Shown here piece after piece: positions 19,057 through 63,772 of a DNA stretch of 64,000 nt. The notes under the pieces were generated by a model that saw nothing but the letters and a program-made list of their open reading frames with translations, ran no database searches and was not told the DNA's origin. Position 1 is the stretch's first letter. Every line of letters starts with the position of its first letter. The DNA is from Antedon mediterranea. Lineage: Eukaryota; Echinodermata; Crinoidea; Comatulida; Antedonidae. The position numbers were made by a program, and so were the translations under genes. The stretch spans positions 7,817,001 through 7,881,000 of the forward strand of contig NC_092677.1 in assembly GCF_964355755.1 (NCBI RefSeq), given 5' to 3'.

Positions 19057-22000
19057 ATGAATCAAGTTGTATTTGTGGTAATACTGTTCTGTTTTGGGAA
19101 TGTGGCAGCCTACCCATCTGGTGCCGCAAGTTCTGCTTGTGAGAGCATGACTCCCAACCATGGAGCTTCGGCACAGCCTAACAACGAGTCGCCATATAAT
19201 GTTACGATCAGTTCCTCAGCATATACATATGAAAGCGAAATACAAAGTACGTATTATTTTTTCGTTTAGGCACACGGAACGAAAGATGAGGGTAATGTAT
19301 AGAGGGTGATGGGTTTATACCGTTCTTAATTGTTATATTTATAATTTAGAGCAGATGTCGTTTCGTGTACAAATACAAATATTTTGGAGCTATATTCGGA
19401 CAATCAGACTGAAAACAGCAGCATGCCAATGGAAAGCCCTTAGTACTAACACTAATCATAATCCATCAGCTTTGTTTTTTTCAGGGAAGATTTACTCTTC
19501 CCTGTTTTTTTTTCTCACTAAGACGAAACGAGGAGGACGTAAGCGCAACGCAAGCAATTTGATCAATCACGACGGGTTTGAATGATGTAGTAATTGGTAA
19601 AAGTACATGCGTTGGAGGAGTTGGATAGCCGAGTGGTTAGGACACTCGACTGTCGTACAATGCCCGACAACTCACAGTCCACTCAGCTGTAAAATGAGTA
19701 CCTGGTTGAAAATACTAGGGAGAAAAAAGGCGGCGTGGAAATGAACTGGCCACCCTACCACATAATGCCGAGGCTTAGTACAATGAGCTCCTAACAGCTC
19801 ATTCCCCTACGTTCAGAGAACACGGGACTCACCCACCCCACCCACATGCGTTACGCTTACGTTCTTGCGTTGCAACCTAGTGGCAAACCAAGTTTCAATC
19901 CTAAAATTATACGTATATTACAGCCATGAGCATGCTACTGTTTTTGACGATTCACTATCTGATTGTTCTGGTTTTTGCTTTTTTAGTTCAGATATCTTCA
20001 GATGTAAATTTTAAGGGATTTCTTTTACAAGTAAGGAATCCGGATACTGATGAAATCTATGGCGAATTCATCGAAAACCCACCATCTACGAAATATTTGG
20101 GTTGTACTGGCGGTACTTCAAATGCAGTCACTCATTCAGACTCAACGAACAAAATGTTTCTAGAGTTTACATGGAAGGCAAACTTCCAAAATGGCCCATC
20201 GACACTTGTTCCATAGTAAGTATTCTAGAGTTTACATGGAAGGCAAATTTCCAAAATGGCCCATCGACACTTGTTCCATAGTAAGTATTCTAGAGTTTAC
20301 ATGGAAGGCAAATTTCCAAAATGGCCCATCGACACTTGTAATGCGCCTCTTACACTAGGAGCATTGGGACTCGAATAACAAGGTTTGCGACAGCTCCTGG
20401 GAAGCTTGCCCATATGTTTGGGACAAAAAAAAACTATATTATTTATAAATACTTGCATAATAACAATGAATATAATAACATAGATAGGCCTCCAAAATTG
20501 GATTAAAACATCTTTAATTACATCAATACCATGCATTTATTGTGTCAGCATCCTCGTTGCCGTTAAGACAGTCAAAGAGTGAAAGTGGTTGATTCTTCAA
20601 CTTTTGTACCTTTAATGCTTATTCTTCTTGAAACAATTGTCCCTCTGAACAAATAATTTGTTTGCGCCTTTTTTTAGCTTTAGTCGAATAAGACCCTTTA
20701 TTGTGTTTTCTCCAAAGCCAAAATTATTATTTGTATTTTCAGTGTCACGGTCGTTCAGAGCAGGCTAACATTTTGGGTAAAACTTGAGGGACCGGAAATT
20801 AATTGTAAGTATTCATAATCGTCATCGTACCCACTGAAGTTATTATTATGTATAAAATACATTGTGTAAACCAATTAATAATTGTTTTCTTGAATTTTTT
20901 TTGTTGCATTTTAAAACAAAACAAAACAGATGTTTGTTCTACTCTCTGACGTTTAAGACTCATCTGTTTCCAATTTCAAAATTGTTATTCTAGTAATGAT
21001 CGTTTTAATTAAGGATTGTGTAAAATACAAAATGTTTACCTTAATAATCTTTATGGTAAGTTTTGATTTTTGTAATTTTAAGATGTATCATTTTAGGTAT
21101 TCTATCTTGTTTGGAACGGCCCCTTATAAATACTATTATAATAATTATTTATTATTATCATTACACTTGAGATCTTTGTTTAATCATTCTCCGGTAGGAC
21201 TCGAGCCCACAATCTTAAAGAAACTAGACGTTCATTCCCCTAAGCTACAGAGCTTTCGCTGATGTTCAGGGTTAAATTCTAAAAGTTATTAATTCTTAAA
21301 GTATAAAAGGCCGTAACGGTAGGGCCTACTGCGCCAACAGAATGGCAATTTAACTAATAACCATACCTCGAAGTAGTTATATTATCAACATTTATATTGC
21401 AATATTAAAAACATACATGCGTTTTAGGCCTATTTTGAATTGGTATTCCCATAATTTTTAGCATGCAACTTGAACTGTTTAAATGGAGGTACATGCAGCT
21501 TCAATGGGAATGGTGAAGAAATCTGTAATTGTGATGATGGGTTTTCAGGACCTACTTGCAAAATTAGTAAGTTTTTAAGACAATTTTGGAAAATTATGAT
21601 TACAGCATTTCATTTCATAACTGATGATATATATAATATTTAGTTGATACATATTACCATCGAGCTTGTTAAATGAAATGTCTGTTAGATCATAATTATT
21701 TGTGTGTGAAGTATTATTGCTGCGTAGTAGCTATATTTATATCTTGACGGCAATTTGACCTCCTGTAACGCTTCATTGCTTGTCAATTAATTCGAAAGAC
21801 CATGGTTTGTCTTCAAAACAATAGGCCCAAGATGACCTAGGCTACGTTATGGCTTTCGCTCTCTCTGCTGATAAAATCAATTATTGCAGGCGACAATCGT
21901 AAACTGCATAGAGTCCGTGGGAGGTCATTTGCTATCAAATTAGAAATACAATTTAATTATATTTTTTTAACGTTTATTATCACATTATTTTAAAATAATA

Positions 22001-22119
22001 TCAGAATTTGAAATTTACATATGTGACCCGCCAATAACCAATAAGTGTAGGCCTATGTTAAAATAATGTATCATTGTCTTTTTTTTACAGTAACTGTGTA
22101 TTGTCCATGTAAAAACTAA
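19057..22119 (+). CDS. secreted Reeler-EGF protein, 204 residues
   Basis: Exons: 19057-19246, 19987-20215, 20743-20804, 21462-21566, 22091-22119. All joins are GT-AG and phase-consistent (615 nt including stop). Residues 1-18 are a signal peptide (MNQVVFVVILFCFGNVAA). A Reeler domain follows at about 19-155: YPSGAASSACESMTPNHG, FKGFLLQVRNP, a second Cys in YLGCTGG, NAVTHSDS, and LTFWVKLEG at the end. An EGF domain follows (CNLNCLNGGTCSF, then CNCDDGFSGPTC), then ITVYCPCKN and stop. Reeler domains occur in reelin, spondins and small insect/invertebrate defence proteins; an extracellular role is inferred but the partner is unknown. The EGF and tail exons resemble the last two exons of the gene at 58590-63772. 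Intron 1 carries a SINE. A convergent neighbour (CAP gene) follows 2.3 kb downstream. Confidence 0.92.
19612..19830 (+). mobile_element. tRNA-derived SINE
   Basis: GGATAGCCGAGTGGTTAGGA is a strong box A, followed by tRNA-like anticodon-arm sequence and a body with AAATGAGTACCTGG, a word common in echinoderm SINE bodies. A canonical box B and CCA end are not seen, so it is not scored as a tRNA gene. It lies in intron 1 of the Reeler gene. Confidence 0.65.
20160..20339 (+). repeat. three tandem copies of a 65-bp exon end plus splice donor
   Basis: CTAGAGTTTACATGGAAGGC starts at 20160, 20225 and 20290, a strict 65-bp period. Copies 1 and 2 include the 5' splice site CCATA/GTAAGT; copy 3 stops just before it. 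Only the first donor keeps the Reeler gene open, because reading past it gives TAG at once. Confidence 0.95.
21110..21262 (-). mobile_element. tRNA-derived SINE
   Basis: The reverse complement has GCTCTGTAGCTTAGGGGAAT (box A-like) and GTGGGCTCGAGTCCTACC (box B-like) at tRNA spacing, followed by a short AT-rich tail with ATAAT repeats. Arms do not pair well enough for a functional tRNA. It lies in intron 3 of the Reeler gene. Confidence 0.55.
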
Positions 22120-24387: not shown

Positions 24388-27300
24388 CTAAACACCAGGT
24401 GGTTTGTGTCGAGTACATGGACAAGGCGTTTCAGTAGGAAAGGCTGTAAAGAAAATAATATTACATAAATCTGGGTTAGTGAAGTCTTCACTATTTATAT
24501 TTAATGTCAACACCCTGTTTGCAAAACAAATTGAATAGTATGTTAGTGTGCAGGAAGAAAGGAGTGTATACTGTACTAGGCCTAATATACTTTAATAAGT
24601 CTACTACTCTACTTGCCTCTAAATTACTCATTTATTTTTAATACTGGGCCTACCTATTACTAAAACAGTGTACTCACCAAGACAAACGAAATCTGGATCA
24701 GGATCAACTGTATTTTAAGAAGAAAAAAAAAAAAAAATTTAAACTTTAGAGAAAAACAGCAACACAACAGGTAGAGCTTATAATAGCAACAGTCAATCAT
24801 CAAAACGACAGAATAAAGATTAAAAGATCGTAGCCCTAGAAATAATATTTATTCCTTCTTGCCAAAATCATCATTGCATGTAATAGCCACCAGACTCGTC
24901 AGAATAGGGAAGACAACCATGCATCGTCGCGACGGTAAACGAAAGGGGACGGTAATTAAATCAACAGAGACAATTATTTCGAGAACACAAGCGACGGCGC
25001 AGCGGTCATCCCCCTCCTGACATGCCCGCAGACTCTGTACACGCGTGGGCTTGCGGGAGTGTTTGAAAAGATTAATTTATGGTCTTAGGTTAACGAAGTT
25101 AGAAGGTTGAACTAAAAAACCCCAGGACGCTTATTTTTTTTTAATGAATCTAAAATCACTTCTACACATACTACGTAACATACCTAAACTATGATGTTTT
25201 AGTTTACAAGTGAAAACTTAGGCCTATATTGGGCTTATACGCATGCGCTGATTAATATTTTGTATAGATTACCATATCTCTGTCCCCTATCGTCTACCGT
25301 CGATGCAAAAGCTCACTACTACTTTGACGACGGTAAACCATCATGTAAAACGTTGAATGAATTCCATAATGAATCACCACGTCTATAGTGGAGATCAAGT
25401 TGAAATTTATTCATCTACATCTTTCCTCAGCGCCTCGATTACATAGTTCTAGTCGGATCTGCGTCGTTTTATTACTTTCATTCTCGAACCGAGAATTTAA
25501 TGAACAAGCCGGACAGAATATTTCTACAATGTGGTAGGCATACCGACCTAATTCATAAAACAGGGACAATTAAGTTTGTTCTCACCACATAACCCGCACA
25601 TCTTAGGACAACCTTCATCGACGTAATCAAATCTTCCACACTGTCCTACGAACCAACCATTACCGCAATTCGCATGTGTGTCTGCACAAATTTCTAAGAA
25701 AGACAAAGTCTTTAAACTTGAATAGCAATATAAACTGGACTCAATTGAACAACATTTCGCTTTATAAAGGCCGTAAGGTTTACCAGAGCGGGTACCTCCC
25801 AAACTAATTCGCCAACCACCCACCCACTTCGAGGCATGTTTCCAAATAAATGTAGTTAAAACCTTAAATTCTATTCGATTTGACGACCAATTACTCTCCC
25901 AACTCAGCAGTTAAAAACCATACTATTACAATTCCGGTCACCTTGATACCCTACCTACCCGAACAGTCGTTTCCGAGGTAACCGTCTCTACACGTACACG
26001 TACAGTCACTATTCAATGTTCCACAATTTTCACAAACCTGGTTGCAAACTGTAAAATGAACAGGTTATTATAACGACAATTACTTATTCAAACAGTGCTC
26101 GAGATTTCAATGGATTTTATTTATTACTTAGTCATATAACGTCTACGATGCAGCGGTAGTCATGTGATGTCATTTCGACCGATCACGTATTTACTCTGCA
26201 GATAGGCCTGCTGTAATTTCTGTTCATTGACTTTACATTATAATACAATACAATATCAAAGTTTTGTATTAAAGTGATAAAGGATTATAATCTGGAGATA
26301 AAACTTTGTTGGAAATTCGGAAGAAAAATAGACGGAGGACTCAACAAAGATAGAAATCCCACCGTTTCCCATGTTTCTGATTTTCTTTCGTCATACTCAT
26401 GTGTAGAATAAACTGAAAGTTTATGATGAAACTGAAAAAAAAACAACAATACTTACTGCATTCCTCATTGTGTTCCGAACATGGTCCTATACATAAAAAC
26501 AAGAATCAAGAAGAAAATAAAAAGAAGGCATTAGCAGACCAGCTGACTGGAAGATTTAAAATCGATTCAGGATAAGCGCAAATAAAATTGTTTAGTTGAT
26601 CACGCATAACATTTTTAAAAAACAGGGTCGGTTTGACTGACATCACATAATACAGTAATAATCTTGTTAAAAAAAAACTAAAGATAGAAGATTTACCAAT
26701 GCATGCTATGTCAACAAAATATTACTGTAATGCTCAATTACAAAAACCGAATTTTAAATCGTTCATTCTTTTTAGGCCTAATTAATGATGCTGAACAATT
26801 TGAAAAAGAAACAAATATTATTCAAGGTAAGGTAGGCCTACTTACGACATTGATTTTCGTAGCATTGATTCGAACCCGAAGAACACTCGGTACAACTCGG
26901 TCCACTGACGTAGGGATGTCGATTGTAATTACCACTGAAAACGATAATTGATTTTGTTGAAAGATGTATTGAATGCCATATGAGAACATTTTATGTTTTC
27001 GTATTTTTCTACAACACTTTAAAATATCTCCATTGTCAAATATCGTGTAATAGCCTACATTATGTTAATTCGATAGGAAAGCTTATATAATCATTTTCAT
27101 CGGTGGCCATACCCAAATCAATACACCATAGCTAGTAAGTAGCCTAACTACTGCCCTAAGTATCTAGGTAGGTCCTATGTTATTCTCAATGAGTTGTTAT
27201 AGAGAGAGATTTAATAATTTCTATACTGTGGTTACACCATGATAATAATTTAAAATAAAAAATACAAACAATACGTACGCTGGTCCATAGTTACATGTCA

Positions 27301-28792
27301 ATATCCACTTATTTGTACAAAAAGTAAGGCCACAGCCAAGTGCATACGAGTCGGCCCAAACCACCTAAAGAAAACATGACAATTAACACTCAGATTCAGT
27401 TGAATTACATTGTACAGATTGTCCCATGGTAACGTCCCCGATATTCAAGTCATCCTCGCAACCTCCTTCAGCTAAAGCTACATCCTCAACGAGGCCGGGC
27501 CGTAGACAAATCAGAGACAGTTACGTTTTTCGGCGCTGTGTTCACATACGTAGGATACGGGAAAGATAATTCTTCCTGTATACATTACTATATTATTTAG
27601 GTTATGCTATTATAGGCCCTAGTTTGTTAAACAATGCAAAATCTTTCCCAACCGTCATTTACCCCTTTGTCGCGCCTGGAAAGCATAACCATTGCTTTCT
27701 ATAAACGAATATTTTGGTTTAATACTTATGTATTATAAATTATAAAAAAAGTTTGATGCCACCATAGATATATTATATATATCTATATTTCACTATAATA
27801 TCTTCGTTAACTGTGTAACATATTTGTGTAATGAGTCTTTGTGAACATTTTACAATGTGATATGACATATAATAGGCACAACTAAGCACTATAAGCGTAT
27901 ATAGGATGGCATACATCAACATTTTCCGATTGTATGTTAACATACGTGCATGTTTAAAAAATATTGATGTCAATAAATTTATAAAAATGATCAACTATAA
28001 TTCGTTAAAGTGACGAATTAAATTCTAGTTCAAATCTAATTTTGTTGAAAGAATTAACATGTTATTTTTTACAGTTGAACCACTTGACTGCAGATTACTT
28101 ATTATTATTTTTTAAATCACATACCTGCGTGTAATGGCCACAGACATCACTACATTCACGTGTGTCGTAGTTGTAATATTGATCTTCATTGTACCACGCC
28201 TGTGTTGCCGATGCCAGGTTTGGACGGTTGCTAGCGCTTGCACCGGAGCTGTAAAGGTTTTGTCCAACAGGGTCAAATGGAGAGATGTTTGTTGGTTGAC
28301 CATGTTCAAAGACACAACCGTCCGACCATTCTTGTGCCATAGATGCTAGGTCGTCATCCCACGACTATACAAATGCAATAATACATTCAAATAAATTGTT
28401 TCGTTACCAACTATAAATTAGAAACTTGGAAAAAAAAATCAATTTCCTTCCTGGGAACATTATGCTGATTTTCAATTCGAACTTTCCATTGAAACTTACG
28501 AAACGAAATTAGTATCATATTTCTGTTATGTCTTTTATTCATTTCATTTCACAGTCATTTTACGCATGCTCGTATCGTTTCTGAGCGTGCGCAGAATATT
28601 GTGAAAGACATGGCCTACCATGTACTTCATGTCCGATGCTTCTGGAGAAACTTGTGACCTTAGTTCATTGTGTTTGTCGAGAACTGTCTGAATTTCTTCT
28701 GCTGTCAAATTACTAGAACTTGGTCTGAATGTAACATAAAGAATTAAGATAAACAGAAATGTCCTTAGTCTGAAAAAAAGAAAGAAAGACAT
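24388..28792 (-). CDS. secreted CAP-ShK protein (CRISP-like), 300 residues
   Basis: Exons on the minus strand: 28792-28619, 28364-28125, 27364-27279, 26934-26846, 26486-26457, 26048-25959, 25693-25586, 24707-24678, 24443-24388. They total 903 nt including stop, all GT-AG, all phases agreeing. The signal peptide is MSFFLFFRLRTFLFILILYV. The CAP domain spans about residues 30-175: HNELRSQVSPEASDMKYM, SWDDDLASMAQEW, CVFEH, VGQNLY, WYNEDQYYNY and GHYTQVVWADSYALGCG. Next come a Cys-rich hinge (PCSEHNEEC), an EGF-like exon ([15 protein letters not shown]...), a six-cysteine ShK domain (ICADTHANCGNGWFVGQC to CPKMCGLC), a 10-codon linker exon (DPDPDFVCL) and a tail with TPCPCTRHKPPGV. CAP proteins are extracellular sterol/lipid binders, protease-linked factors or channel modulators; the actual role is unknown. 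The last exon is the least certain. A polypyrimidine-CAG at 28762-28775 also leaves a spliced 5' end possible. Confidence 0.92.
24921..25306. mobile_element. MITE-like element in CAP gene intron
   Basis: Imperfect inverted ends GCATCGTCGCGACGGTAAAC and GCATCGACGGTAGACGATAG (complement of right end) enclose about 350 bp of non-coding DNA between the ShK and linker exons. Termini match imperfectly and no target duplication was resolved. Confidence 0.5.
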
Positions 28793-34917: not shown

Positions 34918-35000
34918 TTCCACAACTCGGGTACAACTCGAGTAAAACTCGCGTAAAAATCGGGTACAACTCGTGTACATCTCGGGTACGACTCAGGTTA
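34918..35000. repeat. short 12-bp tandem repeat
   Basis: Degenerate units of the type ACTCGGGTACAA (variants ACTCGAGTAAAA, ACTCGTGTACAT, CTCGGGTACGA) recur about six times. Each unit carries a possible CTCGAG-like core. Confidence 0.7.
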
Positions 35001-43560: not shown

Positions 43561-44045
43561 TTAAATAATGTTAATTATAATTGGTTTAATTGTGCATTCT
43601 CTGCTTAAAAATGTATTTTAATTTACTATTGTGTATGTATGTTAATTTAAAATAATGTTAAATTATAATTGGTTTAATTGTGCATTCTCTGCTTAAAAAT
43701 GTATTTTAATTTACTATTGTGTATGTATGTTAATTTAAAATAATGTTAAATTATAATTGGTTTAATTGTGCATTCTCTGCTTAAAAATGTATTTTAATTT
43801 ACTATTGTGTATGTATGTTAATTTTAAATAATGTTAAATTATTATTGGTTTAATTGTGCATAAAAATGTATTTTAATTTACTATTGTGTATGTATGTTAA
43901 TTTAAAATAATGTTAAATTATTATTGGTTTAATTGTGCATTCTCTGCTTAAAAATGTATTTTAATTTACTATTGTGTATGTATGTTAATTTAAAATAATG
44001 TTAAATTATTATTGGTTTAATTGTGTTATACTTGCTCTAAAAAAT
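43500..44045. repeat. 88-bp minisatellite, about six units
   Basis: Units contain TTGTGCATTCTCTGCTTAAA and TTTACTATTGTGTATGTATG. Starts at 43591, 43679 and 43767 give an 88-bp period; one later unit has an internal deletion (about 43855). Strongly AT-rich, non-coding. Confidence 0.9.
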
Positions 44046-44634
44046 CTTTTTAATTCACTTTGTATGTATGTTTTAAATAATGTTAAAAAATCTATTTCAT
44101 TTTATACAGTACTGTAAAACTCCTGCACATTCTGCTATTTATGCAAAGGTACTGACTATGGGCAAGAAACTTTTATCATTTCAGATTTACAGTTTTGTTT
44201 GGTATAACTGCAGATGGTTTTTTTTTTCATGTTCCGGCATAGATGTTTATTTTTCTATTTGAAGACATCCAAGTAAGACCTAATTAATAAACCAATCAAA
44301 ACTAACATATAGATATTGAAAATCTATATCTATGTGTTGGTTTGTGGTTATTCCTTTACAGATTGACTTAAGTTGTTACTTATATAATATATTATAATCT
44401 ATATCATAAAATATGTGCATTAGTATTATAGGCTATGATAATTGGGTAAGTATATTGATACAGGTATGTGTTTTTTGTTTATAAACTACCTACATGAATT
44501 TACATAGGTTAGTTTTCATACCTCTTTGAAATATATTTTTTTATGTAATTTCTACTCATTCATACCCTTTCAGTGTTCTGGTCTGATGTTTGTCAGTATG
44601 TTCCTGCCTAGATGTTGATTTTTTTCTTTACGAT

Positions 44635-47600
44635 CCAGTCTGTGTTTATTTCAATACATCATCAAAAAATATTGAGAATAAGTAAATATGGAAAATGTGT
44701 CTGTGTTTATTTCAATACATCATCAAAAAATATTGAGAATAAATAAATATTGAAAATGTGTCTGTGTTTATTTCAATACATCATCACAATGCATTGAGAA
44801 TAAATAAATATTGAAAATGTGTCTGTGTTTATTTCAATACATCATCACAATGCATTGAGAATAAATAAATATTGAAAAACGTGTCTGTGTGTTTATTTCA
44901 ATACATCATCCAAATACATTGAGAATAAATAAATATTGAAAAATGTTTCTGTGTGTTTATTTCATTACATCAAAATACATTGAGAAAAAATAAATATTGA
45001 AAAATGTGTCTGTGTTAATATTTCAATACATCATCCAAATATATCAAGAATAAATATATTTTGAAAAATGTGTCTGTTTATTTCCATAGATCATCACCAA
45101 TACATTGAGAATAAATAAATATTGAAAAATGTTTCTGTGTGTTTATTTCATTACATCAAAATACATTGAGAAAAAATAAATATTGAAAAATGTGTCTGTG
45201 TGTTTATTTCAATACATCATTTACAAAACATTGAGAAGAAATAAATATTGAAAAATGTGTCTGTGTTTTATTTCAATACATCATTCACAATACATTGAAA
45301 ATAAATAAATATTGAACAATTTGTCTGTGTGTTTATTTCAATACATTATCTAAAAATATTGAGAAAAAATAAATATTGAAAAATGTGTCTGTGTGTTTAT
45401 TTCAATACATCATTCAATAAATAAATATTGAAAAATGTGTCTGAGTGTTTATTTCAATACATCATCACAATACATTAGGAATAAATAAATATTGAAAAAT
45501 GTGTCTCTGTTTATTTCAATACATCATTCACAATACATTGAGAAGAAATAAATATTGAAAATTGTGTCTGTGTGTTTATTTCAATACACCATCAAAAAAT
45601 ATTTAGAATAAATAAATATTATAAAAATGTGTCTGTGTGTTTATTTCAATACATCAAAATATTTTGAGAATAATATATATTGAAAAAGGTGTCTGTTTGT
45701 TTACTTCAATACATCATTCACAACACATTGAGAATAAATAAATATTGAAAAATGTGTCTGTGTGTTTATTTCAATACATCATCACAATGCATTGAGAATA
45801 AATAAATATTGAAAAAATGTGTCTGTGTGTTTATTTCAATACATCATTCACAATGCATTGAAAATAAATAAATATTGAAAAACGTGTGTGTGTTTATTTC
45901 AATGAGACATGTTTACGCCAAGTTTGTACTTTCCCGAAACCATGAAATACCGGAATGGTGTCCGGTGGGGGATAGTTTCACCATGTAGTTTAAGTTCTAT
46001 TTATTTGTTGTTAGCCGAAATTGTTCAATTCATTTCAAAATAAATGTTTTTTTTATATATTTACAAATGACAATAAATTTACTTACTTACTCATTCACAA
46101 AACATTGAAAAAGTGAATAAATATTGAAAAATGTGTCTCTGTTTATTTCAATACATCATTCACAATACATTGAAAATAAATAAATATTGAAAAATGTGTC
46201 TGTGTTTTATTTCAATACATCATTCACAATACATTGAAAATAAATAAATATTGAAAAATGTGTCTGTGTTTATTTCAATACATCATTCACAATACATTGA
46301 AAATAAATAAATATTGAAAAATGTGTCTGTGTTTTATTTCAATACATCATTCACAATACATTGAAAATAAATAAATATTGAAAAATGTGTCTGTGTTTTA
46401 TTTCAATACATCATCACAATACATTTGGAATAAATAAATATTGAAAAATGTGTCTCTGTTTATTTCAATACATCATTCACAATACATTGAGAATAAATAA
46501 ATATTGAAAAGTGTGTCTGTGTGTTTATTTCAATACAACTATAACAAAATATTGAGAATAAATAAATATTTAAAAGTGTGTCTGTGTGTTTATTTCAATA
46601 CATCATTCACAAAACATTCAGAATAAATAAATATTGAAAAATGTGTCTGTGTTTATTTCAATACATCATCACAATGCATTGAGGATAAATAAATATTGAA
46701 AAAAATGTGTCTGTGTGTTTATTTAAATACAACTATCAGAATGCATTGAGAATAAATAAATATTGAAAAAATGTGTCTGTGTGTTTATTTCAATACATCA
46801 AAATATATTGAGAATAAATATATATTGAAAAATGTGTCTGTGTTTTTATTTCAATACATCATCACAATGCATTGAGAATAAATAAATATTGAAAAATGTG
46901 TCTGTGTGTTTATTTCAATACATCATCACAATACATTGAAAATAAATAAATATTGAAAAGTGTGTCTGTGTGTTTATTTCAATACATCATCACAATGCAT
47001 TGAGAATAAATAAATATTGAAAAATGTGTCTGTGTGTTTATTTCAATACAACTATCACAATGCATTGAGAATAAATAAATATTGAAAAAATGTGTCTGTG
47101 TGTTTATTTCAATACATCAAAATATATTGAGAATAAATATATATTGAAAAATGTGTCTGTGTTTTTATTTCAATACATCATCACAATGCATTGAGAATAA
47201 ATAAATATTGAAAAATGTGTCTGTGTGTTTATTTCAATACATCATCACAATACATTGAAAATAAATAAATATTGAAAAGTGTGTCTGTGTGTTTATTTCA
47301 ATACATCATCACAATGCATTGAGAATAAATAAATATTGAAAAATGTGTCTGTGTGTTTATTTCAATACATCATTCACAAAACATTGAGAATAAATAAATA
47401 TGGAAAAGTGTGTCTGTGTTTATTTCAATACAAATATAACAAAATATTGAGAATAAATAAATATTTAAAAACGTGTCTGTGTTTATTTCAATACATCATT
47501 CACAATACATTGAGAATAAATAAATATTGAAAAATGTGTCTGTGTTTATTTCAATACATCATCAACAAATATTGAGAACAAATAAATATTGAAAAATGTG

Positions 47601-47640
47601 TATGTATGTTTATTTCATTACATCGTCACAATATATTGAG
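44635..47640. repeat. 64-bp minisatellite, about 45 units, 3 kb
   Basis: Units of the type TGTGTCTGTGTGTTTATTTC + AATACATCATCACAATGCAT + TGAGAATAAATAAATATTGA. The usual period is 64 bp (46897, 46961, 47025), with 57-66 bp variants. Each unit carries AATAAA on the plus strand. A higher-order period of about 318 bp is visible between 46700 and 47340. A 187-bp foreign segment interrupts it at 45904-46090. Confidence 0.95.
45904..46090 (+). mobile_element. retroposon 3' end inserted in the minisatellite
   Basis: GAGACATGTTTACGCCAAGT to GACAATAAATTTACTTACTTACT is unlike the surrounding units and ends in a (TTAC)n tail, as LINE 3' ends do. It has no coding content. Confidence 0.65.
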
Positions 47641-48115
47641 AATAAATAAATGTTGAAAAATGTGTATGTGTGTTTATTTCATTATATCAATCAATATCAA
47701 TATACATTATTAATAAAATCTGAACATGGAACCTGTGTTTTTATATATGAAATTCCTTATAATCAAAATATTTCCTTAAAATTAAAATTGTTGTTACCTT
47801 TAAATCATGTTATATTATATGTTATAAACAGCATTTTAATTCACTTATATGTATGTTAATACTAAATAATGTTAGTATGCTTGGTTGTAACAAAATTGTT
47901 TTCAATTCAATTGGTATTTATATTTATTTTAAATAACTAAAAATATCTGTTTAATATCTTGTACTATGCTAAAAGCATTCTATTTCACTATAGTATGTAT
48001 GTAAATTTTAAATAGTGTTAATTATTATTGGTTTAATTTCTGTATACTGTTTAAAAAAAATGTATATTTACTATTGTATGTATGTATGTATGTTAATTTT
48101 AAATGTTAAATTATA
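47590..48115. repeat. downstream copy of the duplicated flank
   Basis: Same unique order as 43030-43560: TATATGAAATTCCTTATAAT, ATAAACAGCATTTTAATTCA, GCTTGGTTGTAACAAAATTG, ACTATGCTAAAAGCATTCTA. Similarity resumes further on: 48440-48560 (CAGATTGGCATCGGTGTGTT ... CAAGTAAGAC) matches 44180-44280. Confidence 0.85.
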
Positions 48116-50458: not shown

Positions 50459-50960
50459 ATCAATTGCTTTTGCTGCTCCACTATCATTTTCATTATATGC
50501 TTCTCCACCCCTATTTCAATCAATATATCCTCATTCCTTCTGTGTGGAGTATAATGAAACATTTTCTTTCCCTGTAATCCATGTTTCGCCTCCATACAAT
50601 GCAACATACCATACCACTGATTTAACCATATCTTTTTGTTTTTATGCTTGCCTTGTCAGAAATAGAATTTCCTTTGCCGTTTCCTATCCACCTTATTATC
50701 TATCTATTTCTACCATGTTCTGTTAATTTTTCTCCTAAGAGTAGATTGATGCAACTTTTAAACACGCACAGACCTTCGACTATACCCTGTGTCCCGCAAA
50801 GGGGATTTGTTCCATCTTTTTGTAATCACCTCACCACTTCCATTCTTGTGTCTATGGCACAGTCACATGGTGTTAATTTTTCTATTATTGGTCTTCCTTC
50901 CATAATTTTTCCTGCTTCATTTATGTTATCCATTAGTATTTGCGATTACCACCTTGTCAT

Positions 50961-52046
50961 CTATGGAACGCCTCCTCTGCCTTCAGTTCACATTTATCAT
51001 GCAGTACACACCAATCGTCATGCAGTACACACCAATCGTCATGCAGTACACACCAATGGTCATGCAGTACACACCAATCGTCATGCAGTACACACCAATC
51101 GTCATGCAGTACACACCAAACAACATGCAGTACACACCAATCGTCATGCAGTACACACCAATCGTCATGCAGTACACACCAATCGTCATGCAGTACACAC
51201 CAATGGTCATGCAGTACACACCAATCGTCGTTCACATTTATCATGCAGTACACACCAATCGTCATGCAGTACACACCAATCGTCTTGCAGTACACACCAA
51301 ACATCATGCAGTACACACCAATTGTCATGCAGTACACACCAATCGCCATGCAGTACACACCAATCGTCATGCAGTCAAATATTGCGTAATTTATCGACAA
51401 AATCGAATATCACGTGAGTTTTATTAGACGGCTGTAAAACTAAGACTATTTAAACTTCTTTTATGGAATTCAATAATTGCTAATGGCCTCCTAGCCGCGC
51501 CTGTGTCTCACATAATAAATTATTGTATATATAAAAAACAGAGCATTCACAGAGATGTGTAGCGGTTAAAATAAGTACAGTATGTCAAACATAAAAGAAA
51601 TCTTAGAGTCGATGGCCTAGTTTTACAGCCGTCTAATAAACGTCACGTGATATTCGACGATTGGTGTGTACTGCAAGCATGACGATTGGTGTGTACTGCA
51701 TGACAATTGGTGTGTACTGCATGACCATTGGTGTGTACTGCATGATGTTTGGTGTGTACTGCATGACGATTGGTGTGTACTGCATGATGTTTGGTGTGTA
51801 CTGCATGACGATTGGTGTGTACTGCATGACCATTGGTGTGTACTGCATGACGATTGGTGTGTACTGCATGACCATTGGTGTGTACTGCATGATAAATGTG
51901 AACGACGATTGGTGTGTACTGCATGGCCATTGGTGTGTACTGCATGACCATTGGTGTGTACTGCATGACCATTGGTGTGTACTGCATGACGATTGGTGTG
52001 TACTGCATAGCAAATGTGAACTGAAGGCAGAGGAGGCGTTCCATAG
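50961..52046. mobile_element. foldback-type element: 1.1-kb palindrome with minisatellite arms
   Basis: The left arm (50961-51442) and right arm (51618-52046) are inverted copies. Outer ends are CTATGGAACGCCTCCTCTGC, then 21-bp tandem units (TCATGCAGTACACACCAATCG) about 18 times on the left and about 16 on the right, then GAATATCACGTGAG and TTATTAGACGGCTGTAAAAC. A 175-bp loop lies between. TCAT directly flanks both ends. No transposase is present. Long inverted repeats made of tandem repeats are the hallmark of Foldback/Galileo-type elements. Confidence 0.85.
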
Positions 52047-52067
52047 TCATCAGCCTTTTTTTTTTTG

Positions 52068-56437: not shown

Positions 56438-56512
56438 TAGTCGTGTGCAAACACGAGCGACTCTATGTCGGTCGGTCGGTCGGTCGGTCAATTGGTCGGT
56501 CGGTTTTCTATA
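56438..56512. mobile_element. copy of the (GGTC)n short element
   Basis: TAGTCGTGTGCAAACACGAG, CTCTATG, then (TCGG)n. The 3' part (CAGCCATGTATATGGCC) is missing. Confidence 0.6.
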
Positions 56513-56754
56513 TATTTATTGATGAATTATTCTACTATTGTACCGTTTTCAATAGATTGTGTATAATTTCATATTTATTTAGGAATATATTTTTGTATGA
56601 TAATATGTTTTTATGTATTTTCCTTACATATTTCTAGAATGAATATGCTTTGTTCCTTATTTCTTGATATGATATAGTGATTGTATTTTCTTACATATTT
56701 CTTGATATATTACTGTATATTCTTGAATATTTCTAGATATACTGTATTGTGTTT

Positions 56755-57370
56755 TACTTACATAAATTATGCATCTCTTGATATGATATATGTTTTCTTA
56801 TGCATTTCTTGATATGATATATGTTTTCTTATGCATTTCTTGATATGATACATGTTTTCTTATGCATTTCTTGATATGATACATGTTTTCTTATGCATTT
56901 CTTGATATGATATATGTTTTCTTGTGCATTTCTTGATATGATATATGTTTTCTTATGCATTACTTGATATGATATATGTTTTCTTATGCATTACTTGATA
57001 TGATATATGTTTTCTTATGCATTACTTGATATGATACATGTTTTCTTATGCATTTCTTGATATGATACATGTTTTCTTAATTATTTCTTGATATGATATA
57101 TGTTTTCTTGTGCATTTCTTGATATGATATATGTTTTCTTATGCATTTCTTGATATGATACATGTTTTCTTAATTATTTCTTGATATGATACATGTTTTC
57201 TTATGCATTTCTTGATATGATATATGTTTTCTTATGCATTTCTTGATATGATATATGTTTTCTTATGCATTTCTTGATATGATAATATGTTGTTTTATGC
57301 ATTACTTGATATGATATATGTTTTCTTATGCATTTCTTGATATGATAATATGTTTTCTTATGCATGTTTT
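56755..57370. repeat. 31-bp minisatellite, about 19 units
   Basis: The unit CTTGATATGATATATGTTTT + CTTATGCATTT is repeated with a 31-bp period (56839, 56870 and so on) and variants TACATG, TTAATTATTT and GTGCA. Open frames through it are artefacts. Confidence 0.95.
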
Positions 57371-58589
57371 GATATGATATATTAGGTTTTTCTGTTTTTT
57401 TTATTAACCAACACCAAGGAGCACCATTACAAGTGCTACCTGCCCTAGGTGTCCTCGCTCTGATCATCAACCTTGACGTGGTAGCGAGGCTTGTGTGTTT
57501 CCAATTCGGAGACCAGACTAATGATGATCATAATAATTTTTCCAAAAATTTGTTATTGACAATATCATGAGCAAACTATTAGAAGACAATTAGTTTCTTT
57601 AAATTTAAAAGCATAGTTTCTTCATCAAACAAAAAATAATAGAGGAGTATCAATTCAATTTCATTTATTAAAACAGATGAAAAAAATTATTATAAATGAT
57701 GAGTTCCTTCTGAAATAAAGAATTGAAGGAGGGCTTAATCCCTAAAATATTAATATTTAGTTGGGTAAGCCTGAAAGAAAAAAAAAACAAACAAAAACAA
57801 TATAATCGCAATCTCTTTGGATGTTGTCACTGTAGCTACTAATGGTAAAGCTTGGTTTCCACTAGCAATGAGTAAGTGCTGTACTATGTTTTCCAGTGTT
57901 CTTTTGCCTTCCGTTGTTGCGTGAAATCAAACTGATTTGATTTCCCGTGGCGATGCTTGCAGCACTGTTGCGTCGTCGGTTCCCACTTGTGATTACGCAA
58001 GATGGCACTTTGCGTCGATACATCGCTGCGTTGCGTTACGTTCTACTGAATTATCTTGGAAAATCACTACCATATTTGGGCACACCACAATTTTTGTCAC
58101 ATAAAGTTTGATAGTGTAGACAGAGCTTTAGAAATACTGTACATTTGGAAGTGTGAACGCACACCGTAAAAAAGTTCAGGCATATTATTTTTGTTTACAC
58201 TTATTTTTCTATCTTTTATTATTTTCACAACTAAACTTTAAATTGTTATCCATTAATATGTGTTAGTCTTGAATAATAACTTCATTTCTCTCCACCAAAT
58301 TAGTTACAAGTATTTGATTTCCAACCTTAACTGATATCTTTTTTGACCGTTACTAATACTTAACTGTCATACAGAGAAACCCGTCTACGTCTAGGAGTTT
58401 TAAAATCTTATTTAGACCTATAAATTATTCAAAGAGATGCGTACAACATTTTCTAATATTGATCTGTGTCGATCTCTATTTCGTATTTGTTAAATGTTAA
58501 AGACAAGTGTTTTTACCACTCTCCAGTAGTTTATGTAGGCCTACGATAGGTCTATATATCTTATGAATGTTCCTTTTTTCACTAACCCT
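57371..58589. other. 3' flank of CAP/EGF-family gene 2 with transposon remains
   Basis: 57852-58055 contains a MITE-like piece (GGTTTCCACTAGCAA to TGCGTTGCGTTACG). 58060-58135 holds the right half of MITE family 1 (ATCACTACCATATTTGGGCA ... GATAGTGTAGACAGAGCTT). A candidate minus-strand poly(A) signal AATAAA is the complement of 58215-58220, 370 bp past the stop codon. Confidence 0.5.
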
Positions 58590-61500
58590 TTAGTAGCAGG
58601 GGCAATACGCAGTTACTGTAAAATTAAAAAGAAATATTATAAAATTAGAACTGTAAATATGAGTTCAAATGCTTTGAAAACAAGTGATTATAGGATAAAC
58701 TATACATTTACCTGCTAAACGCAAAAGTTTTACTTACAAGGAATGACCAGTCTCATGTGTATTTTCTAAAACACTCATGGATCGTTGATATATACTACTA
58801 ATCATGTTTGATCAAATTAACATACCTCTTCGGCAAGTTTCTCCTGTGAAGCCATGTAGACATGTACACATTTCATTACCATCGCCATTGTAACCACATT
58901 CCCCTCCATTCAAACAATTTAAGCTGCAATCGTTTTCTAAATGTCATACCAAATTAATAATACATTTGGTTGTCATATATTGAGATGGTTCGTAAGCTAT
59001 CTTTCGGTTCTTTGAGAGTAAATATTTTTTGTCTCTGCCACTTTGTAGAAAACAATGCATTTGGGTTTATATAATCCTACTGTAAAATGTTTTATAGATA
59101 CAACGGCTTTTTAGTAAAAATTGTAACCATTTATTTTGTCTTTTTACAAGTGATATCATTATTTCAGATAAGCCACCAAAACTAATGATTTGTAGAAAAG
59201 ACAGCATTAATATCATATAGCTTTAAAGTAATTGTATTTATAGTATGGGAAAATAATGGGCATTCCGTTTTTAGTCGCTTTACAGCTCACTATGTTGGTC
59301 GGTTGGTCGGTCAGTTGGTCAGTTGGTCAGTAAACACTAACTTGAGCACGCGACTGCAGCCATGTATATGGCCTTGTTCAAATTGTTTTGTGTTGTTGAA
59401 CTTGTCTTACCTTCTTCACATGTCTCACCAGTATATGTGTCCAAACATGTACAAGTGTATCCTGAACCATCGCCGGAACAAGAACCCCCATTAAGACAAG
59501 GATCACTACCACATGGATCTAAATTAAATATACCGTTTATGAAAACTAAGAAATAAGAAAAAATCCAAACATTTTTCTATGGTACGTATCATTAATATAT
59601 TTTGTTTTCATTTTTGGTGTGTTTATGTATTTTATGATTATTTTAGGAGGAATAAAGAGGAGGTGACTGAAGCCAAATCGTAAGGTTGATAGGGTTGTGT
59701 TAGCAATGATTGTGGTAACATTATAATAAATTCTGAAAATATTATTGTTTACCTATCTTATTGTTATCTTATTGTGCTGGGCTTACCTGGTGTTTCACAT
59801 GTCAGGCCAGTATACGGCTCCAGACATGCGCACGTGTAATCAGAGCCATCGTTGGTACAAGTACCTCCATTAAGACAAGGATAACATTCGCATGGATCTG
59901 AAGGTAATGAAGAAATGAATACAACAATAAATAATCAAGACGACATGCAATAGCAGAAAAGAAAAGTTGCAATAATTAATACCGCATTGCTATATCTAAA
60001 TGACGGAATACAATAGAACCCCTACTTTGGGAACAGTTTCCCACAAAAATAGGGGAATGTTTAACACTATACGGCCACCCCCTACTCAAGGGACACCCAT
60101 ATTAAGGGGACGGAGACACTGTTGAGTGTGCCAAATGGTTGATTCAATTCCTAATAAAGGAAAAATATATTATAAAAAATGACCAAATAATAATTAATTC
60201 ATAACATTATCAATACAAAAATATAATATCCTGATAATTATAATACTTTCTCAGCTTCCATGACAGTTTTTCATGAAACGTTGGCTGCTAAAGTTTCGAT
60301 TCTTCTTAATTTCTATAGATCAGATCAATTAGTGTTCCTTTTTATATATATAGTATATGTTTTTTTGCCGCGAAAACCCATATTTCGTTTTTATTAAGGG
60401 GGAAATTTGTTGGGTCCCGAAGGTATCGTTTAATTGTGATTCTACTGTATTTCGTTTTGCAACTTTGTTTTAGTGTGCTGCTCAGTGAGGTGATCTTACT
60501 TTCAAATTCACATGTTGTACCAGTGTGCGAGTCATAACATGCACAGGTGTATCCTGACACATCGTTTGTACAAGTACCTCCGTTAAGACAAGGGTTACTG
60601 TTGCATGCATTTGAAGCTAAAGTTATATGAAATAATAATTATCATAGAAACTAAAAAAATAACAACAAAACAAAAATCTTTTTTAGAAAGAATGAAAATG
60701 TGAAAAATCCGTGAATGACGGTTGCTGTAACATTGATTGTGGTAACATTAACATTAATTACAAAATGATATGCGTTTGATTATTCCATTTTCATGCAGTA
60801 ATATTTGCTTTGAGCTACATTGTCTATGGGGCCAGATAGGCAGAGCCACCGTTGCAAGGATTGCAAATGCATGATTCATGAAATTATAGAAACAGATGGT
60901 TATTACAAAACAAACAAACAATAGTATGACGTATTTAGTTTTGCAACTTTGTTTGAGCTTCTCTTACTTTGTGTTTGACATGTCGCGCCGGTGTATGTGT
61001 CCAAACATGTACAAGTGTATCCTGAACCATCGTTGGTACAAGTACCTCCATTAAGACAAGGAGCACTGCCACATGGATCTAAAATTAAAAGAAAGCTATC
61101 ATTATGAAATAACGACAATATTCATCCAGAAATATGATGTATTATTTTTCTTTAAACCTTCGCTTTTGTGGTTGTTATGGTTTTACTTACCATGTGTTTG
61201 ACATGTCGCGCCGGTGTATGTGTCTAAACATGTACAAGTGTATCCTGAACCATCATTGGTACAAGTACCTCCATTAAGACAAGGGTCACTTCCACATGGA
61301 TCTAGAGTTAAAATAAAACTATGTTTATGACATAACGACAAACATTATTGGTGAAATGACCGGAATAATCATATTAAAATATAAGGTATTGGTTTTTCAA
61401 TATTTCTTTTTGTAGTTTTCTTACTTTGTGTTTGACATGTCGCGCCGGTGTATGTGTCTAAACATGTACAAGTGTATCCTGAACCATCGTTGGTACAAGT

Positions 61501-63772
61501 ACCTCCATTAAGACAAGGAGCACTGCCACATGGATCTAAAATTAAAAGAAAGCTATCATTATGAAATAACGACAATATTCATCCAGAAATATGATGTATT
61601 ATTTTTCTTTAAACCTTCGCTTTTGTGGTTGTTATGGTTTTACTTACTTTGTGTTTGACATGTCGCGCCGGTGTATGTGTCTAAACATGTACAAGTGTAT
61701 CCTGAACCATCATTGGTACAAGTACCTCCATTAAGACAAGGGTCACTTCCACATGGATCTAGAGTTAAAATAAAACTATGTTTATGACATAACGACAAAC
61801 ATTATTGGTGAAATGACGGGAATAATCATATTAAAATATAAGGTATTGGTTTTTCAATATTTCTTTTTGTAGTTTTCTTACTTTGTGTTTGACATGTCGC
61901 GCCGGTGTATGTGTCTAAACATGTACAAGTGTATCCTGAATCATCATTGGTACAAGTACCTCCATTAAGACAAGGGTCACTTCCACATGGATCTAGAGTT
62001 AAAAGAAAACTATAGTTTATGACAAAACGACAAACATTATTGGTGAAATGACGACAATAATCATATTAAAATATAAGGTATTTGTTTTTAAACCTTTCGT
62101 TTGTGTGGTGTTTATGTGTTTTCTTACCTTGTGTTTGACATGTCGCGCCAGTATATGTGTCCAAACATGTACAAGTGTATCCTGAACCATCGCTTGTACA
62201 AGTACCTCCATTAAGACAAGGACCACTATCACATGCATCTAGTTGATAGATAATTACGGTTTATTCATATGAAAATCATAATATAATAAGATTAGAAAAA
62301 ATATTTGAAATATTTTTGATAAATTTGACAGTTACCAGAGGACCAGCTGCATAATGTAGGCCTACTATGCAGACAATTTATTTTGATGACTATTTAGAAT
62401 CATTACCTCCTAGAAAAAAGGTCAAAGTTCCCTAACATTTATCGCTGCCACTAAATCATCCTAAACTATGTTTTAATCCAATGTATATAAACTTATTTTT
62501 CATAAATGAAATAACTAAAGTTTTTAAATTAGGAAACACTACTTACTATTACAAACAAAATCCGAATCCTGTGCGGCTGTTTTGATGAAAAGAAACGAAG
62601 TGCATATTAATTCGATTTTAATAGAACAATGAAAATCTCAAGAAACAACAATTAAATGTCAACAATCTAATTCAAAAGGTACAACTTTTCATTTATTTTG
62701 CTTACGAGAAAAGAACACATCATTATGCAACACAGGTGAAACACATACAGTCTAGAGAGTGCCAATATTAATAAATAAATAAATTCGTCAAATTTCTTTT
62801 GACTTCAACTCTATAGTTAGTTAATACACGCACCTACGTAGAAACTTACCACATATGCCACACATAAGAGGGCATCCTTTAATGACGTAAGATAGATGAC
62901 ACTGAGCTGGATACCAACCGTTACGACAGTTTTTATGTGTATCTTCACAAGTCACTAACAAAGAAAACAGTTTCACAAACCATAAACCATAGTACTACAT
63001 TATAAAGTAAAAAATGTCATTTTTTTATGTCTTTAGGCAATGTGGCCAATGATTACCAATAGTTTATATACTAATCACTGTTCTATCAGATAGGTGGTAA
63101 TCTCCCTGACACATGGGCTATTTTGTGAACCAGTTTAACGGGTCCCTCTAATTAAAATACGTCAAAATGAAGATTCACACGAATCAAAATATTAAGTTAA
63201 ATAAAGAGCAGATACCATGATTGACACAATCCACAGATTTACACATTTTTGAAGTATTTCAAGGTAATAAACTTTATTTAAGGACCGTAAATAGTAATTG
63301 TGATATTCAAAAGATGATTAATTTACTCTTCGTTGAAATGCGAAGTACTTACATGTGCAGCCGTTTCCATGGTAACCATTTGGACAAGTACAACTGCAGT
63401 CACTATTTAGTGTTCCACAGTTTTCACATTCTTGATTGCAAACTGAAATTATTATTATTTTAAACAAAGATTACCGTATTAATAAATATTGCTAGATAGC
63501 CAGATATTATCATTACACCACATCATCACTCTCCGGTATATGCACAGCACCGACGCGATATTCCCGGCCTGTCTACCATTCAGAAAGCAACCGGGAAAAA
63601 AGTTGACGAGAACCGGTGTCTCAAATAAACAAACTTTAAATTATTCATACCAACACAATAATAATAATAATAATAACACCAATACTAATAATAATAATAA
63701 TAATTACTTTTCAACCTATAAAAAAAAGAAATATAAACTCACCACATTCTTCATTGTGTTCCGAGCATGGGC
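58590..63772 (-). CDS. secreted ShK / multi-EGF protein of CAP-gene family, 5' end outside the window
   Basis: Exons on the minus strand: 63772-63743, 63442-63353, 62954-62850, 62576-62547, then EGF exons 62238-62128, 61992-61882, 61758-61648, 61535-61425, 61301-61191, 61078-60968, 60616-60500, 59897-59787, 59518-59411, 58936-58826, and the last exon 58615-58590. All are GT-AG and phase 1, giving 463 residues in the window. The first four exons parallel the CAP gene at 24388-28792: [24 protein letters not shown], the Sh[18 protein letters not shown] ... CPLMCGIC, and the linker DSDFVC. Ten EGF domains follow, most reading [16 protein letters not shown]... TGATCQTQ, then a divergent [20 protein letters not shown] and VTAYCPCY with stop. 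A CAP domain upstream of base 64000 is predicted by parallel with the paralogue but not seen. EGF arrays suggest extracellular binding; no calcium-binding consensus is obvious. Confidence 0.92.
59270..59376. mobile_element. copy of the (GGTC)n short element in an EGF intron
   Basis: TTTTTAGTCGCTTTACAGCT, (TTGGTCGG)n, AGTAAACACTAACTTGAGCA and GCAGCCATGTATATGGCCTTG match the element at 53689-53797. It ends 34 bp from the exon at 59411. Confidence 0.75.
60968..61992. repeat. 457-bp tandem duplication containing pairs of EGF exons
   Basis: Exon ends at 60968, 61425 and 61882, and exon ends at 61191 and 61648, are all offset by exactly 457 bp. The introns between them are almost identical too (for example GAAAGCTATCATTATGAAAT at about 61090 and 61547; GACAAACATTATTGGTGAAA at about 61337 and 61794). 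Confidence 0.95.
63656..63705. repeat. (AAT)n microsatellite
   Basis: Imperfect AAT/ATA trinucleotide run in an intron of the gene at 58590-63772. Confidence 0.95.

What the first reader, a model, noticed from the sequence alone, without database searches (positions are those of the whole stretch)
19057..63772. Reeler gene and the EGF-array gene share the same two terminal exons
The last two exons of the plus-strand Reeler gene encode CNLNCLNGGTCSF...GFSGPTC then ITVYCPCKN-stop. The last two exons of the minus-strand gene at 58590 encode [13 protein letters not shown]...GFTGETC then VTAYCPCY-stop. The intron phase, the distinctive [10 protein letters not shown] start and the tiny tail exon all correspond. 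The CAP gene between them ends in its own short CPC tail exon but lacks the EGF. This suggests that an EGF plus YCPC tail cassette was moved, with inversion, between neighbouring secreted-protein genes with different head domains (Reeler versus CAP/ShK). The shared CPC tail may be a functional C-terminal module, for example for disulphide-linked assembly.
Basis: partly seen in the sequence, partly recalled or inferred. Interest (0 to 1): 0.72.

Follow-up and report, generated by a model that had tools for sequence, protein, structure and literature searches.

The report
Shared EGF-plus-cysteine tail on unrelated proteins
In this animal genome many secreted proteins with quite different front ends finish with the same small two-exon ending (an EGF domain plus a short tail with two cysteines), and the Reeler gene shares that ending with the CAP genes around it, a concrete case of how animals recombine protein parts.

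Summary
The main observation is real. The plus-strand Reeler gene (5 exons, 204 aa) and the minus-strand CAP-ShK-EGF-array gene end in homologous exons: a phase 1-1 EGF exon and a phase-1 tail exon ([17 protein letters not shown]). The side claim of a CPC tail exon in the CAP gene between them is not confirmed.

The pair is part of something larger: 17 predicted genes on six chromosomes carry this ending, and one more has the tail only. Heads include Reeler, CAP, YWTD repeats, DM13-DOMON and V-set Ig. One DNA-tree branch (98/98) separates two types. The Reeler tail subtype has 10 genome matches, 8 of them in a 110-kb CAP-gene cluster that includes the Reeler gene, so a Reeler head joined to a CAP-cluster 3' end is the best reading. 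Direct inverted transfer between the two genes is not shown: the array ending groups with Ig-EGF genes 6 Mb away (89/94; rival not rejected).

At the tail's Tyr and Cys codons most changes are silent, suggesting selection on the peptide. Disulphide-linked assembly is my favoured role, by inference only. No RNA or protein data were available.

The parts
19057..19246 (+). Reeler gene exon 1 (start codon, putative signal peptide, N-terminal part of Reeler domain)
19987..20215 (+). Reeler gene exon 2 (core of Reeler domain; PF02014, E 1.4e-28 for the whole protein)
20743..20804 (+). Reeler gene exon 3 (end of Reeler domain, phase-1 donor)
21462..21566 (+). Terminal EGF exon of Reeler gene, phase 1-1, CNLNCLNGG type
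22091..22119 (+). Tail exon of Reeler gene, (I)TVYCPCKN-stop
58826..58936 (-). Terminal EGF exon of CAP-ShK-EGF-array gene, phase 1-1, CSLNCLNGG type
58590..58615 (-). Tail exon of CAP-ShK-EGF-array gene, (V)TAYCPCY-stop
59411..62238 (-). Array of ordinary EGF exons (C-x4-C-LNGG type) of the same minus-strand gene; not part of the shared cassette
62848..62949 (-). ShK-like exon of the minus-strand gene; its CAP exons lie beyond the window (L035)
25551..28714 (-). Second CAP gene (CAP exons 28619-28714, 28119-28361, 27281-27364, hinge 26841-26915, ShK 25584-25688); its CPC is read-through of the ShK exon, not a separate tail exon

Best explanation
The last two exons are a portable 3'-terminal gene module: a short EGF domain (mostly 3 residues between its first two cysteines, encoded by one phase-1/phase-1 exon) followed by a tiny tail exon that starts in phase 1 and encodes x-[TVIL]-[VAG]-[YH]-C-x-C plus 0-7 residues and the stop. 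Because any upstream secreted-protein exon that ends in a phase-1 intron can be joined to it in frame, the module has become the 3' end of many genes with unrelated heads. In this window the Reeler gene stands at one end of a CAP-gene cluster whose genes carry the same tail subtype; most likely Reeler head exons 1-3 became joined, through a phase-1 intron, to a module copied within that cluster (shown: homology, phases, clustering; inferred: direction and event). At the protein level the tail adds two cysteines beyond the EGF's own six; I infer that they pair between chains or as a CxC disulphide and so help secreted proteins assemble or be retained. That last step is inferred only.
For: Module on 17 predicted genes with both exons: 16 in the tree, plus the CAP gene L062 whose EGF exon is partly disrupted; one further gene (C-type lectin/EGF/Sushi) has the tail only. 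Heads by Pfam: Reeler 1.4e-28, CAP 9.2e-11, Ldl_recept_b 5.5e-18 and 1.1e-13, DM13 7e-15 + DOMON 1.1e-14, V-set 4.6e-8, and Lectin_C + Sushi for the tail-only gene. Phase-1 acceptor, donor and tail acceptor available in 14 of 14 modules examined. Tail patterns: 3 vs 0 reversed control, 11 vs 0, 6 vs 0, 10 vs 1, 8 vs 3. Controls: of 15 other C-x3-C-[LF]NGG EGF exons, 14 have no short [YH]CxC tail frame in the stretch read and one (L052) has a doubtful one; 0 such tails in 65.5 kb of ten other Reeler loci. DNA tree: one branch, 98/98, separates the six type B modules from the ten others; simple CAP modules 98/98; Reeler with CAP-array + Ig-EGF 84/71. Local clustering: 8 of 10 matches of the Reeler tail subtype lie in C8:7.839-7.949 Mb; of the five matches not known before that search three fell in the cluster, in two genes that both show CAP exons. 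The Reeler EGF is closer to CAP-array/Ig terminal EGFs (61%) than to any EGF read in the other Reeler loci (best 53%), although its Reeler exon matches those of 8 of the 10 loci at 24-36%. Tail selection: at the Y, C and C codons, type B tails show 28 synonymous and 0 non-synonymous pairwise differences, type A 16 and 4.
Against: No RNA-seq: the splice junctions are read from signals and phase only. The EGF is short: with 84 background EGFs (33 columns) none of the five finished AU tests rejected anything, the simple-CAP modules fell apart from the rest, and the EGF of L052 fell beside the CAP-array EGFs. Tails were in part found with patterns that demand Y-C-x-C, so their conservation is partly ascertainment, and pairwise counts are not independent. 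Direction (CAP to Reeler) rests on six of the seven cluster genes being, or probably being, CAP genes; for CAPs2 and the second array gene the CAP exons were not read. No relic of CAP exons was found beside the Reeler gene, nor of Reeler exons in the seven loci searched, all of module-bearing genes. Tail-like exons without an EGF in the stretch read exist, so the two exons do not always travel together. Reeler + array, Reeler + Ig-EGF and Reeler + simple CAP are all not rejected.
Confidence: 0.62

Rival explanations
1. Direct transfer between the two window genes: the cassette was copied, with inversion, from the EGF-array gene to the Reeler gene or the other way.
For: The two lie about 36.5 kb apart on opposite strands, share YCPC exactly, and are close relatives (72% DNA over the module). 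A Reeler + array clade is not rejected (p-AU 0.244).
Against: The array cassette is closer to Ig-EGF cassettes about 6 Mb away (76-78% DNA; 89/94 branch; blastn E 2e-22 to 2e-21 vs 7e-8). The EGF-tail introns do not align, which argues against a recent copy. Same-strand candidates exist in the simple CAP genes.
Confidence: 0.2
2. Ancient shared descent: the Reeler gene and the CAP genes descend from one gene that already had the EGF + tail, and only the head was replaced or lost; no cassette ever moved.
For: Heads and tails are adjacent in one cluster; Reeler genes elsewhere in this genome also have EGF exons behind the Reeler exon in 8 of 10 loci read, so Reeler + EGF is a standing combination here.
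Against: Replacing the head of a gene while keeping its 3' end is the same exon-joining event in mirror image. The Reeler EGF is less like the EGFs read in the other Reeler loci (best 53%) than like CAP-array/Ig modules (61%), and none of the ten stretches shows a YCxC tail (but their 3' ends were probably not reached).
Confidence: 0.2
3. The tail is a passive by-product: EGF-bearing genes gain a ready-made stop codon and 3' end when they fuse to this cassette, and the YCxC peptide has no function.
For: A terminal cassette brings its own stop; tail copies without a visible gene exist (C8:6531294 is 84.5% identical over 317 bp to the 3' end at C6:5174867).
Against: Y-C-x-C is kept while third positions change and residues around it drift, with the reservation that pattern searches favoured YCxC; one gene lacks the terminal EGF but has the tail.
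Confidence: 0.2
4. Splicing artefact: the tail exons are not used, and the similarity reflects chance CPC peptides in open frames.
For: No transcript data; CPC alone occurs in several unrelated frames.
Against: Phase, acceptor and stop fit in 14 of 14 modules; pattern matches 3 vs 0, 11 vs 0, 6 vs 0 and 10 vs 1 against reversed controls; DNA homology of tails between genes; 14 of 15 control EGFs without such a tail.
Confidence: 0.05

Closest known systems
EGF-like domain encoded by a symmetrical phase 1-1 exon (classical exon-shuffling module, recalled; Pfam PF00008/PF07974)
   Same: Six-cysteine EGF on one exon, phase 1 at both ends, combined with many other extracellular domains.
   Different: Here the shared unit is the 3' end of the gene: EGF plus a second, stop-bearing exon with an extra cysteine pair. 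The unit is asymmetric (1-stop) and can only be terminal.
Terminal domain gain by joining exons of adjacent genes after duplication (Buljan et al. 2010, PMC2926785; contested by Nagy and Patthy 2011, PMC3927616; abstracts and section lists seen)
   Same: Terminal position, neighbouring genes, tandemly duplicated family.
   Different: Several genes with the module in different contexts are visible in one genome, with intron phases and two module types; I could not date or polarise the events.
Secretory tailpiece of IgM/IgA (recalled, not from a call)
   Same: Short C-terminal extension after the last domain, on secreted chains, with cysteine near the end that can link chains.
   Different: The tailpiece has a single cysteine and belongs to one gene family; here two cysteines as C-x-C and many unrelated heads. 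Function here untested.
CAP superfamily proteins with C-terminal cysteine-rich parts (CRISP with ShK-like domain, CLEC18 with EGF; recalled)
   Same: CAP head followed by hinge, EGF and/or ShK.
   Different: The YCxC tail exon; no such tail is known to me in those families (recall, not searched).

Membership tests
Reeler-domain protein (PF02014) | Full-length match to the Reeler profile above its cut-off | tested here: met
   residues 28-152, profile 1-131 of 131, 100.5 bits vs 21
EGF-like domain | Six cysteines in EGF spacing and Pfam match | tested here: inconclusive
   cysteine pattern met in the 16 modules aligned; for the Reeler EGF the Pfam scores 19.9 and 17.2 are just under the cut-offs 22.1 and 21.5
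Exon-shuffling module, class 1-1 | EGF exon bordered by phase-1 introns on both sides | tested here: met
   14 of 14 modules examined have such sites; sites by signal and phase, no RNA
CAP superfamily (partner genes) | CAP profile match | tested here: met
   PF00188 43.1 bits vs 21.1 for the array gene; CAP exons in L060, L061, L062, L063 by tblastn
Disulphide-linked assembly tail (IgM-tailpiece-like function) | Tail cysteines form inter-chain disulphides needed for oligomers | not testable with these tools
   only sequence conservation is available
Adjacent-gene exon joining | Donor-type and recipient-type genes are neighbours and module subtype is local | tested here: met
   8 of 10 genome matches of the subtype within 110 kb, in seven genes
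Adjacent-gene exon joining | Recipient nests within the donor clade | tested here: inconclusive
   Reeler groups with array + Ig-EGF modules, apart from simple-CAP modules; 84/71 and 89/94 support, not starred

The most novel reading that the evidence does not exclude
This lineage uses a generic, heritable C-terminal 'assembly tag' for secreted proteins: any head (Reeler, CAP, YWTD repeats, DM13-DOMON, lectin, Ig) fused to the EGF + YCxC 3' cassette is cross-linked through its tail cysteines into a common extracellular structure, and new components are recruited by exon joining to the cassette.
Probability: 0.15. Interest if true: 0.78.

Novelty: new variant of a known kind. Interest (0 to 1): 0.52.

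Why it matters
How animal proteins gain terminal domains, by fusion of neighbouring genes or by exon shuffling, is contested in print (PMC2926785 versus PMC3927616, abstracts seen). A genome in which one small terminal cassette sits on 17 predicted genes, in two distinguishable types, with a local cluster where genes of different heads share one subtype side by side, is a good natural test. It also names a short peptide, Y-C-x-C at the very C-terminus, whose conservation across unrelated heads predicts a common biochemical role that can be tested directly.

Tried and rejected

Protein tree of 13 tail-linked and 84 background EGFs and AU tests on it: 33 columns; the tail label is clustered (4 changes against 12.4 in shuffles, 0 of 500 as low), but no clade was rejected or shown, and the last of six AU tests did not finish. 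Replaced by a DNA tree of the module's exons (one search was the same script with a wrong pattern and failed).

Polyadenylation signals behind the tails: present in 13 of 15 stretches of 239-600 bases, but also in 54% of random 300-bp stretches, so no evidence. Solved structures with the module as query: 39 sequences, among them Notch, Delta-like, Jagged and coagulation factors; only the two best alignments were displayed and show no YCxC tail after an EGF. Literature: YCPC with EGF-like domain, 0 papers; CXC motif with four other terms, 0; Reeler, DOMON, CAP domain, EGF (3 of 4), 0; Reeler domain, EGF-like, domain shuffling (2 of 3), 35 papers of which 15 listings were seen and none opened; exon-shuffling terms, 4 listings, none opened; domain-gain terms, 3 listings, two opened as outline and abstract. 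These searches cover open PMC papers only, so absence from print is not shown.

Control mended on re-check: I had first counted 0 of 15 control EGFs with a YCxC tail. Rescanning showed that L052 (C8:567165, minus), one of the 15, has a GTAAGT phase-1 donor and a short frame ending AYCVC-stop about 75 bases on, behind an acceptor without a pyrimidine tract; it is a doubtful or decayed member and is not counted among the 17.

Rows dropped or limited: pattern hits C2:4592571 and C2:4592731 were not followed. L028 (C10:15201677), L034 (C8:6531294), L064 (C11:18187410) and L066 (C11:5292947) have tail-like exons without an EGF in the stretch read and are not counted among the 17. L065 (C10:17002373) gave no short tail frame. 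In L062 the start of the EGF exon is disrupted, so it is counted among the 17 but not in the tree. Of the 40 EGF pattern matches, 11 are cassette EGFs, 15 were read as controls and 14 were not read. Heads were not read for CAPs2, IgEGF2 and IgEGF3, and the CAP exons of the second array gene were not read; these are placed by near-identity of their 3' ends or by their EGF.
Full report
What is there. The window is C8:7817001-7881000 of an unnamed 354-Mb genome, by its genes an animal's. The plus-strand Reeler gene has five exons with clean AG/GT inner borders, 19057-19246, 19987-20215, 20743-20804, 21462-21566 and 22091-22119, which join in frame into 204 residues. Residues 28-152 match the whole Reeler profile; E 1.4e-28. 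The fourth exon is an EGF bounded by phase-1 introns, the fifth gives the tail ITVYCPCKN. On the minus strand, an EGF exon at 58936-58826 and a tail at 58615-58590 give ...[42 protein letters not shown]. That gene runs out of the window; its upstream exons in L035, at C8:7.881-7.884 Mb, are CAP exons, so its plan is CAP, EGF-like, ShK-like, EGF array, terminal EGF, tail. A near copy stands next to it (L031; 79.5% over 976 bp at the 3' end).

One part of the finding fails. In the second CAP gene (25.5-28.7 kb, minus) the CPC is in the same open frame as the ShK exon, 17 bases past a GTGAGA site at the place where the homologous exon of the array gene has its donor, and I see no acceptor before it. 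Three-residue CPC strings occur in several other frames of the window.

The sharing is homology, not chance. In DNA the two EGF exons match at 71% over 96 bp (E 7e-8) and the tails at 83% over 36 bp (E 1e-4). The only other match between the two 3' ends is AT-rich, 34 bp, in opposite orientation, between the intron before the array gene's EGF exon and DNA behind the Reeler tail (E 0.006; the second array copy has a like match of 40 bp, E 3e-5); I leave it uninterpreted. The introns between EGF and tail have no detectable match, which argues against a recent copy. Genome-wide, the strict tail pattern occurs three times against none for its reverse. The Reeler EGF's five best non-self matches are all on C8 at 61%, E 4.9e-8 to 1.5e-7; the next is at 8e-5.

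The cassette is genome-wide. Looser tail patterns gave 11 matches against 0 reversed, 6 against 0, 10 against 1 and 8 against 3. Reading the loci showed the same EGF + tail ending on YWTD-repeat genes at C3:11.70 and C6:5.17 Mb, a DM13-DOMON gene at C7:22.93, a V-set Ig + EGF-array gene at C8:1.58 (with near copies of its 3' end at 1.20 and 1.62), an Ig-like/EGF gene at C11:15.40 (Ig by eye only; Pfam sees EGF), two genes without a Pfam head at C6:23.59 and C8:16.03, simple CAP-type genes at C8:7.918, 7.928, 7.938 and 7.948 and at C2:26.93, and the three copies on C8 already named. That is 17 predicted genes with both exons on six chromosomes, 16 of them usable in a tree. A C-type lectin/EGF/Sushi gene at C11:20.14 has the tail directly behind its Sushi exon, without the terminal EGF, and that tail matches the others in DNA. 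Some membership rests on the 3' end alone: heads were not read for CAPs2 (C8:7.918) and for two of the three Ig-EGF copies, and the CAP exons of the second array gene were not read. That heads and tails belong to one transcript is inferred from order, strand and phase.

Controls. The EGF subtype with three residues between the first two cysteines followed by [LF]NGG has 40 pattern matches, 4 in the reversed control. Eleven of the 40 are cassette EGFs, 15 were read as controls (1.6 kb downstream for 14, about 1.5 kb for L010), and 14 were not read. Of the 15, 14 had no short [YH]CxC tail frame; one, L052 at C8:567165, has a phase-1 GTAAGT donor and a frame ending AYCVC-stop about 75 bases on behind a poor acceptor. 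Its EGF also fell beside the CAP-array EGFs in the protein tree, so it may be a divergent or decayed member; I do not count it. The same scan showed a tail in L014, reached through, which became a counted member. Ten other Reeler loci (65.5 kb) held 0 such tails on the sense strand. Phase-1 acceptor, donor and tail acceptor were available in 14 of 14 modules examined.

Two types and a local cluster. In a tree from 114 DNA columns of EGF and tail codons one branch (98/98) separates six type B modules (YWTD x2, DM13-DOMON, Ig-like/EGF, two unknown heads) from the ten others; simple CAP modules form one group (98/98), and Reeler joins CAP-array and Ig-EGF modules (84/71), which pair with each other (89/94). 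Reeler + CAP-array as an exclusive pair is not rejected (p-AU 0.244), nor Reeler + Ig-EGF (0.277), nor Reeler + simple CAP (0.242). The tail subtype with threonine two residues before Y has 10 matches in the genome, 8 of them in C8:7.839-7.949 Mb, 109,434 bases, in seven genes. The pattern was written after five of these were known, so the fair statement is that three of five new matches fell in the same cluster; the two genes behind them have CAP exons (in one the tail exon is duplicated in tandem). The simple CAP genes lie on the same strand as the Reeler gene, so no inversion is needed.

Where the Reeler gene got its ending. Of ten other Reeler exons in the genome, eight are followed by EGF exons on the same strand within the 6-7.5 kb read, so Reeler plus EGF is a standing combination here. 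But the window's Reeler EGF is closer to CAP-array and Ig-EGF terminal EGFs (61%) than to any EGF read in the other Reeler loci (best 53%), while its Reeler exon matches those of eight of the ten loci at 24-36% and finds none in the other two at E 0.05. Against it: no relic of CAP exons near the Reeler gene, nor of Reeler exons in the seven loci searched, which belong to module-bearing genes; the 3' ends of the other Reeler genes were probably not reached; and the nodes that matter are weakly supported.

Function. Across 13 tails compared (one of them the orphan L028; four later or near-identical members left out) the Y codon is TAT 6 times, TAC 6 and CAT once, and the cysteine codons switch between TGC and TGT. 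At these three codons type B tails (seven, the lectin gene's included) show 28 synonymous and 0 non-synonymous pairwise differences, type A tails (five) 16 and 4, while the residue between the cysteines varies more freely (ratio 0.6 and 0.9). These counts are not independent, and patterns that demand YCxC found part of the set, although all 16 tree members are also on the hit lists of the EGF searches. I take the peptide to be under selection. The EGF uses its own six cysteines, so the tail brings two more; pairing between chains, as in the IgM tailpiece (recalled), or a CxC disulphide is the likeliest use. Nothing here tests that.

Verdict. Exon joining at phase-1 introns is a known process; a short stop-bearing EGF + YCxC ending on so many different heads is a variant I have not seen described, within the limits of the searches.

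Noticed in passing
window 20158-20352 (+): A 65-bp unit covering the 3' end of Reeler exon 2 and its splice donor is repeated three times in tandem; the first two copies keep the donor, the third does not.
   Followed up: partly
L034 (C8:6531000-6536500), minus strand: Orphan copy of a tail exon: 84.5% identical over 317 bp to the 3' end of the YWTD-repeat gene at C6:5174867, with the frame of the tail kept (VGYCQCALP) but no EGF seen in the 5 kb upstream.
   Followed up: partly
L052 (C8:565590-567190), minus strand: EGF exon of the same subtype with a phase-1 donor and, about 75 bases on, a short frame ending AYCVC-stop behind a poor acceptor: a possible divergent or decayed member.
   Followed up: partly
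L061 (C8:7938269 and 7938540, +): The tail exon of one CAP gene is tandemly duplicated 271 bp apart, both copies reading TGYCNC-stop.
   Followed up: no
L062 (C8:7941400-7948700): CAP gene with an internally repeated hinge exon and an EGF exon whose start is disrupted, next to an intact-looking tail.
   Followed up: no
L036-L045: Eight of ten other Reeler exons in the genome are followed by EGF exons on the same strand: a Reeler-EGF-array gene family.
   Followed up: partly
window 42855-47950, 50944-52058, 56643-57417: Minisatellite arrays: about 61-65-bp units, two inverted arrays of 21-bp units, and a 31-bp array.
   Followed up: no
L028 (C10:15201677, +): Tail-like exon (IVYCPCQT-stop) whose DNA matches the Reeler tail at 76% over 58 bp, without an EGF seen in 7.7 kb upstream.
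   Followed up: partly
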